Assembly (NCBI GenBank): GCA_947259865.1
Contig: CAMYNZ010000036.1
Location: 1-18,929, forward strand
Direction of reading: 5' to 3'
Origin: an uncultured Desulfobacterales bacterium
GTDB lineage: Bacteria; Desulfobacterota; Desulfobacteria; Desulfobacterales; G020354645
DNA: 18,929 nt
Below the pieces are notes generated by a model that did no database searches, had not been told where the DNA came from, and worked only from the letters and a program-made list of their open reading frames with translations. Below, piece by piece: positions 14,947 to 15,942 of this stretch (its first letter is position 1; each line of letters begins with the position of its first letter). The translations under genes and the position numbers were made by a program.

Positions 14947-15942
14947 ATGAACATTTCACCGGACAAAGAAAAGGCGGTTGAAACCGCAATAGTACAGATA
15001 GAACGCCAGTTCGGCAAAGGTTCTATTATGAAGCTGGGGGATAGCCCCGTGATCCGTGTGCCGATTATTCCGACCGGGTCCCTGGCCCTTGATACGGCCC
15101 TGGGCGTGGGAGGAATTCCCAGGGGCAGGGTGGTTGAAGTATTTGGACCGGAAGCATCCGGCAAGACAACACTGGCACTCCACGCCGTCGCCGAAGCACA
15201 AAAACTGGGTGGTATTGCTGCTTTTGTGGATGCCGAACATGCACTGGATGTTAACTATGCCAGAAGGTTGGGGGTTAATTGTGACGAACTCCTCGTTTCC
15301 CAGCCCGACACCGGCGAACAAGCCCTGGAAATCGCCGATATGCTGGTGGCAGCGCTGGTTCCGCGGGCAGAAATTGAGGGAGAGATGGGAGATTCTCACA
15401 TGGGACTTCAGGCTCGGCTCATGTCCCAGGCGATGAGAAAGCTCACCGCGACTATCGGTAAAACCATGACGACGGTGATTTTTATTAACCAGATTCGGAT
15501 GAAAATCGGTGTCGTATTTGGCAACCCGGAAACGACCACCGGCGGAAATGCCTTAAAATTTTATTCGTCCGTAAGACTTGACATCCGGCGCATCGGCGCC
15601 ATTAAAGATGGTCAGGAGGTTATCGGAAATCGCACCCGGGTTCGAGTGGTCAAAAACAAGATGGCACCGCCTTTCAAAGAGGCTGAGTTTGACATAACTT
15701 ACGGGGACGGTATTTCAAAAACAGGTGATCTGCTCGATATGGGTGTGGAGGCGGGCATCATTGAGAAAAGCGGTTCCTGGTATTCCTATGACGGTGAGCG
15801 TATCGGTCAGGGCCGGCAAAACGCTAAAAAATTTCTGGGCGAAAATCCGGATATTCAAGAATCGGCCTTGAAAAAGGTCAAAGAAACTTTGGGTTTGTCC
15901 GAGGTATTAGAAAAAGAAAGTGCTCCCGAAGATAAATCATGA
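14947..15942 (+). CDS. recA: RecA recombinase with an internal in-frame loss of the Walker B strand
   Basis: RecA forms ATP-dependent filaments on single-stranded DNA, drives strand exchange, and triggers LexA cleavage. The 331-aa product matches RecA end to end: Walker A GPEASGKT (68-75), E97 in [21 protein letters not shown], the L1 region [18 protein letters not shown], and the L2 loop [14 protein letters not shown]. However, after EIADMLV (residue 134) it goes straight to [11 protein letters not shown]. The E. coli protein has 13 further residues there, RSGAVDVIVVDSV, including Walker B and its aspartate (D144). The reading frame is kept (39 bases missing at 15348/15349). Such a protein should not bind or hydrolyse ATP normally. 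Either the gene is defective or the assembly is wrong. AAGGAGG before the ATG sets the start. Confidence 0.95.

What the first reader, a model, noticed from the sequence alone, without database searches (positions are those of the whole stretch)
15310..15400. RecA has lost about 13 residues that contain the Walker B strand, in frame
The sequence reads ...[17 protein letters not shown] followed at once by [19 protein letters not shown]. In E. coli RecA, EICDALA is followed by RSGAVDVIVVDSV and then AALTPKAEIEG. The 13 missing residues include Walker B and its aspartate, and the central beta strand of the ATPase core. Everything else aligns without gaps and all other motifs are intact, so this is one clean 39-base loss. 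The break falls after a GGTG, and the lost segment in relatives ends in a valine codon before Ala-Ala-Leu, so slippage between short GTG copies is possible. Options: a real recA mutation in this population, a recently disabled gene, or an assembly or consensus error.
Basis: partly seen in the sequence, partly recalled or inferred. Interest (0 to 1): 0.8.

Follow-up and report, generated by a model that had tools for sequence, protein, structure and literature searches.

The report
recA missing 39 bases, one contig
On this one stretch of environmental DNA the bacterial repair gene recA lacks 39 bases that code for an essential piece of its energy-using site; nearly every relative examined has them, so this is most likely a sequencing or assembly error, or else a private broken copy, and not a new kind of recombinase.

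Summary
The window's recA (14947-15942, 331 codons, no internal stop) lacks exactly 13 residues, in frame, at 15348/15349. They match E. coli RecA 133-145 (or 134-146) and hold the Walker B strand with Asp144. The nearest known proteins, P0002 (3 differences in 331 aligned residues) and P0021, have the segment. So do 93 of 93 distinct recA loci covering the site and 322 of 324 listed database RecA proteins; the exceptions are the window and P0126, from a short contig with two in-frame gaps. A junction pattern of limited reach found nothing in genome contigs or viral contigs. Of 173 residues invariant in 53 relatives the window keeps 166 and changes none; the other 7 lie in the gap. Neighbouring genes look intact and syntenic. 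A predicted model loses confidence and fold similarity. The product should not be a working RecA, and the loss is very recent or not in the organism. I favour an artefact of the contig (0.65) over a genuine private null allele (0.28); a working Walker-B-less RecA is unlikely (0.03). Raw reads would decide; none were available.

The parts
14947..15942 (+). recA ORF, 331 codons plus stop, lacking 13 codons
   Evidence: TIGR02012 511.3 bits against a cut-off of 325.3; PF00154 421.7 bits and RecA_C 86.1 bits
15346..15351 (+). deletion junction: last codon before (GTG) and first codon after (GCA) the missing 39 bases
15145..15168 (+). Walker A (P-loop) GPEASGKT, residues 67-74, intact
   Evidence: translation; the residues in it that are invariant in alignment A1 (G67 P68 E69 G72 K73 T74) are kept
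15235..15237 (+). Glu97, counterpart of the E. coli RecA catalytic-site Glu96, intact
   Evidence: Glu96 named in the table passage of PMC9599734
14351..14917 (+). thpR (RNA 2',3'-cyclic phosphodiesterase), upstream neighbour, intact
   Evidence: TIGR02258 147.8 bits; present in the nearest relative
16203..18839 (+). alaS, downstream neighbour, intact
   Evidence: TIGR00344 1006.8 bits, 1-847 of 847; 83% identical in L001

Best explanation
The 39-base loss is most likely an error of this one contig (a chimeric or deletion-bearing read, a false join, or a gap-closing or consensus step during assembly) in an otherwise ordinary recA of an uncultured bacterium that its relatives place in or near Desulfobacterales. 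In this reading the living organism carries the full-length RecA, as its near-identical relatives do. Shown: the gap, its uniqueness among the sequences examined (apart from the similar gap of P0126), the intact surroundings, the lack of relaxed selection. Inferred: that the cause is technical. If the printed sequence were expressed, the protein should be dead: it has no Walker B aspartate to hold the Mg-ATP site, and a central strand of the ATPase sheet is gone.
For: One member, one contig in the protein database. P0002 and P0021, nearly identical outside the gap, are intact. 93 of 93 covering recA loci have the 39 bases and 322 of 324 listed RecA proteins have the whole segment. The junction pattern gave 0 stretches in genome contigs and in viral contigs. 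The only other protein with the strand missing, P0126, sits on a 2,401-base contig and has two in-frame gaps (28 and 10 residues) in one gene, hard to see as successive mutations; it suggests that such gaps arise on metagenome contigs. No relaxed selection: dN 0.076, dS 1.10 against L001, within or near the range of seven neighbours; 166 of 173 invariant residues kept, 0 changed, 7 in the gap; the only residue differing from both P0002 and P0021 is residue 40. The predicted fold is worse than the intact control.
Against: No read data, so the artefact itself was not seen. In relatives the equivalent ends share only 0-4 bases, too short for a k-mer assembler to join without a read across the junction (general knowledge), so some molecule with the deletion may have existed. 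The other 14 genes compared show no recurrent gap, so the contig is otherwise clean. The loss is a multiple of three (1 in 3 by chance). The database is clustered at 90% identity and only 120 rows per search are listed, so further gapped copies may exist unseen.
Confidence: 0.65

Rival explanations
1. A genuine, very recent 39-base deletion by illegitimate recombination or replication slippage, giving a recA null allele in this strain or in part of the population. The cell would be recombination- and SOS-deficient.
For: The sequence reads cleanly through the site and the 14 other genes compared show no recurrent gap. recA inactivation by small insertions and deletions is reported in clam symbionts (PMC3202245, passages read). 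Near-identical intact alleles exist, so the loss would have to be young, which fits the pristine rest of the gene.
Against: A null recA is expected to be selected against in a free-living bacterium (general knowledge), yet it would have to be the allele that was assembled. Nothing in this 19-kb stretch suggests gene decay: the neighbourhood is syntenic with L001. The nearest relative's genome has one RecA, so there is no known spare copy. No other sequence with the same junction was found.
Confidence: 0.28
2. A functional variant RecA that works without the classical Walker B strand, for example as a filament regulator or dominant-negative subunit that binds DNA but does not hydrolyse ATP.
For: The reading frame is kept; 166 of 173 residues invariant in 53 relatives are kept, none changed, 7 in the gap; the C-terminal part (231-310) is predicted with block pLDDT 74-88.
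Confidence: 0.03
3. An older, decaying pseudogene.
For: The catalytic site is lost.
Against: No internal stop, no frameshift, no excess amino-acid change; 0 of 173 invariant residues changed outside the gap.
Confidence: 0.02

Closest known systems
Bacterial RecA (TIGR02012 / PF00154 + PF21096), e.g. P0002
   Same: recA lies between thpR and alaS as in L001; 328 of 331 aligned residues identical to P0002; Walker A, catalytic-site Glu and all invariant positions outside the gap kept.
   Different: 13 residues with the Walker B strand and its Asp are absent.
P0126, a RecA from a 2,401-base JGI contig
   Same: Also lacks most of the Walker B strand segment, with the gap beginning after the same DMLV residues.
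   Different: A more distant protein; the gap is 10 residues and DSV is kept, so an Asp-Ser remains in sequence; a second 28-residue gap lies near the N terminus. No other protein with its gap appears in the 120 rows listed for its own junction.
recA pseudogenes of Calyptogena clam symbionts (PMC3202245, passages read)
   Same: Small insertions, deletions or substitutions that disable recA in an otherwise recognisable gene.
   Different: Those were found by PCR in several symbionts of lineages under genome reduction, with insertions that make stops and larger deletions; here a single in-frame gap on one contig.

Membership tests
RecA recombinase (TIGR02012 / PF00154) | Profile match above the curated cut-off over the whole profile | tested here: met
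   TIGR02012 511.3 bits (cut-off 325.3), 1-321 of 321; PF00154 421.7 bits (cut-off 27), 1-262 of 262
RecA recombinase (TIGR02012 / PF00154) | Walker A (P-loop) | tested here: met
   GPEASGKT, residues 67-74
RecA recombinase (TIGR02012 / PF00154) | Walker B strand ending in Asp (E. coli Asp144) followed by Ser | tested here: not met
   absent from the window; segment present in 93 of 93 covering loci and in 322 of 324 proteins, in one of which (P0136) the Asp is substituted
RecA recombinase (TIGR02012 / PF00154) | Catalytic-site Glu (Glu96) and Gln (Gln194) | tested here: met
   Glu97 and Gln182 of the window, invariant in A1; both named in the table passage of PMC9599734
RecA recombinase (TIGR02012 / PF00154) | Intact RecA ATPase fold | tested here: inconclusive
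RecA recombinase (TIGR02012 / PF00154) | DNA-dependent ATPase, strand exchange, LexA cleavage | not testable with these tools
   needs the protein. By descent this is a recA allele; it is not filed here as a working RecA.

The most novel reading that the evidence does not exclude
A natural population of a Desulfobacterales-like bacterium carries a stable RecA without a Walker B strand that still assembles on DNA, as a non-hydrolysing or dominant-negative filament component that sets a low-recombination or high-mutation state.
Probability: 0.03. Interest if true: 0.7.

Novelty: not a real feature. Interest (0 to 1): 0.12.

Why it matters
If real, a free-living bacterium without a working RecA would be a rare natural recombination-null, and a RecA working without Walker B would challenge the accepted ATPase mechanism. 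As the evidence stands it matters mainly as a caution: an in-frame gap in a conserved gene on a contig passes gene calling and profile cut-offs (this one scores far above the curated RecA cut-off) and can be mistaken for biology.

Tried and rejected
Own genome: none is held for the window, so a second recombinase could not be looked for; the genome of L001 (G001, record CP070652.1) has one PF00154 match at E <= 0.001. Junction search: 0 stretches in genome contigs and in viral contigs; the pattern does find the window itself. Its reach is limited to copies that keep those flanking residues: the same flanks with 39 free bases between them are found in 52 of the 121 loci held, which include repeats of one locus and loci without that part of recA. 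Region-only protein searches at the window junction and at P0126's junction: 8,000 and 7,999 candidates were scored, only 120 listed each time, and no third protein with the strand missing is among the 324 distinct proteins listed. The database is clustered at 90% identity, so a gapped copy inside a cluster could be hidden.

Order-wide recA survey: 368 of 389 genomes match, 346 above the cut-off; only the best-scoring matches are listed, so it says nothing about lower-scoring gapped copies; why 21 genomes have no match was not examined. Relatives of G001: 53 of 58 match.

Repeat-driven slippage: the only direct pair found in 15250-15450 at 8 bases or more is 12 nt, 83% alike, at 15292 and 15418; it lies on both sides of the junction but does not abut it. 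Equivalent microhomology in relatives is 0-4 bases. Chimera of two species joined inside recA: not supported; the left 402 bases are 83.8% and the next 400 bases 81.5% identical to L001, and P0002 differs at 1 residue on the left and 2 on the right. Plasmid records: the 20 rows listed are 63-68% identical, none of 1,296 records reaches 80%; not informative. Rfam: no match at gathering score. Paper searches; no title or abstract start listed describes a Walker-B-less RecA. Passages of PMC9599734 and PMC3202245 were read; the other papers were seen only as listings.

Full report
What is there. The window carries secG, tpiA, a small ORF of unknown family, gap, a GNAT acetyltransferase, an EIIA-man gene, rapZ, a PTS EIIA-2 gene, a ribosome-hibernation (S30AE) gene, rpoN, the lptB-lptA-lptC-kdsC-kdsA run, an M23 peptidase, a HcyBio protein, thpR, recA and alaS (lptB, lptA, lptC and kdsC are named from reading the ORFs and were not run against a family library). 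One tRNA-Leu lies at 9-94. The protein database lists the window's RecA as one member on one contig of 18,929 bases, so the window appears to be the whole contig. The best-matching genome locus is L001 (CP070652.1, 'Deltaproteobacteria bacterium isolate bin85'), 83% identical in AlaS and with the same genes from rpoN to alaS. Most named relatives are Desulfobacterales or Deltaproteobacteria, so I place the organism there by inference.

The gap. recA (14947-15942) is a clean 331-codon ORF. In the printed alignments with solved RecA chains it lacks one block of 13 residues. They put the gap on E. coli residues 133-145; because a valine flanks both sides it can equally be 134-146 (numbering: my count back from Asp144). 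Both contain Asp144, which the table row for RecA (3CMX) in PMC9599734 lists together with Ser69, Thr73, Glu96, Gln194, Lys248 and Lys250 (passage read). The P-loop, the Glu and the Gln are kept. Of 173 columns invariant in 53 relatives the window keeps 166; the other 7 (R, S, G, D, I, D, S) are in the gap and none is changed.

Uniqueness. Of 324 distinct RecA proteins listed by three searches, 322 have the whole segment; the exceptions are the window itself and P0126. One of the 322, P0136, has the Walker B Asp substituted. The 324 are the best rows listed, two of the three searches were aimed at a junction, and they are not a random sample. At DNA level 121 loci were held, and 96 distinct recA stretches were found in them; 93 carry exactly 39 more bases at the site and 3 begin downstream of it. 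An earlier count on the first 80 loci gave 60 with the segment and 3 not covering it, of 63 with a recA match. The closest proteins are P0002 (residues 40, 226 and 309 differ, and the gap) and P0021 (317 aa, 304 residues aligned: residue 40 and four of the last eight residues differ, and the gap); both have RSGAIDIIVIDSV. The junction was not found in genome contigs (one genome for each of 84,980 species according to the tool) or in viral contigs; the reach of that pattern is limited.

State of the rest of the gene. Against L001, recA has dN 0.076 and dS 1.10 over 331 codons; seven neighbours have dN 0.043-0.211 and dS 1.15-1.40 (dS above 1 is near saturation and rough). The one residue that differs from both P0002 and P0021 is Ile40, Val in both; 1 of the 53 aligned relatives also has Ile there. 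So the gene was under normal constraint until the deletion; either the deletion is very young or it is not in the organism. Of 20 window genes, 15 could be compared with loci; with a threshold of at least 2 rows and 30% of rows, recA alone had a recurrent gap of 3 residues or more (101 of 104 rows, which include repeated loci). One of the 15 (EIIA-man) had a single comparison, too few for that threshold. Of the five without a comparison, four match their Pfam families over nearly the whole model and the small ORF at 1359-1844 has no match.

Cause. Two causes remain. A real deletion is not excluded: the contig is otherwise clean and some read should span the junction. Small changes do disable recA in nature, as in clam symbionts (PMC3202245, passages read), but there in lineages under genome reduction. 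The genome of L001 has a single RecA, so a real loss would leave no known substitute. Raw reads would settle it and are not available here.

Verdict. Observation confirmed; not evidence of new biology. Low interest unless reads prove the junction.

Noticed in passing
protein P0126 (JGI contig of 2,401 bases, not in the window): RecA with two in-frame gaps, 28 residues near the N terminus and 10 residues removing most of the Walker B strand, starting after the same DMLV as in the window.
   Followed up: partly
protein P0121 (record named Mycobacteroides abscessus): RecA of 566 aa in which a large part of the core is repeated head to tail; may be a real duplication or an assembly error.
   Followed up: no
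protein P0108: Named Anaerolineae RecA by its source, yet 80% identical to this RecA; the bin may be mislabelled, or the gene transferred.
   Followed up: no
protein P0136: A RecA with the segment present but ending VIGLV in place of VIDSV, so the Walker B Asp is substituted; possibly a sequence error.
   Followed up: no
window 15943-16202: The recA-alaS gap is 260 bases here but only about 30-40 in L001 (recA match ends at 9961, alaS match starts at 10001). It holds repeated GATCCTCGAT and ATCGAGTATC words.
   Followed up: no
window 12766-13947: HcyBio (PF01837) protein of 393 aa, 516 bits; NCBIfam's methanogenesis marker 16 model also matches, but below its cut-off.
   Followed up: no
window 1359-1844 (-): 161-aa ORF, membrane-like by eye, with no Pfam match.
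   Followed up: no
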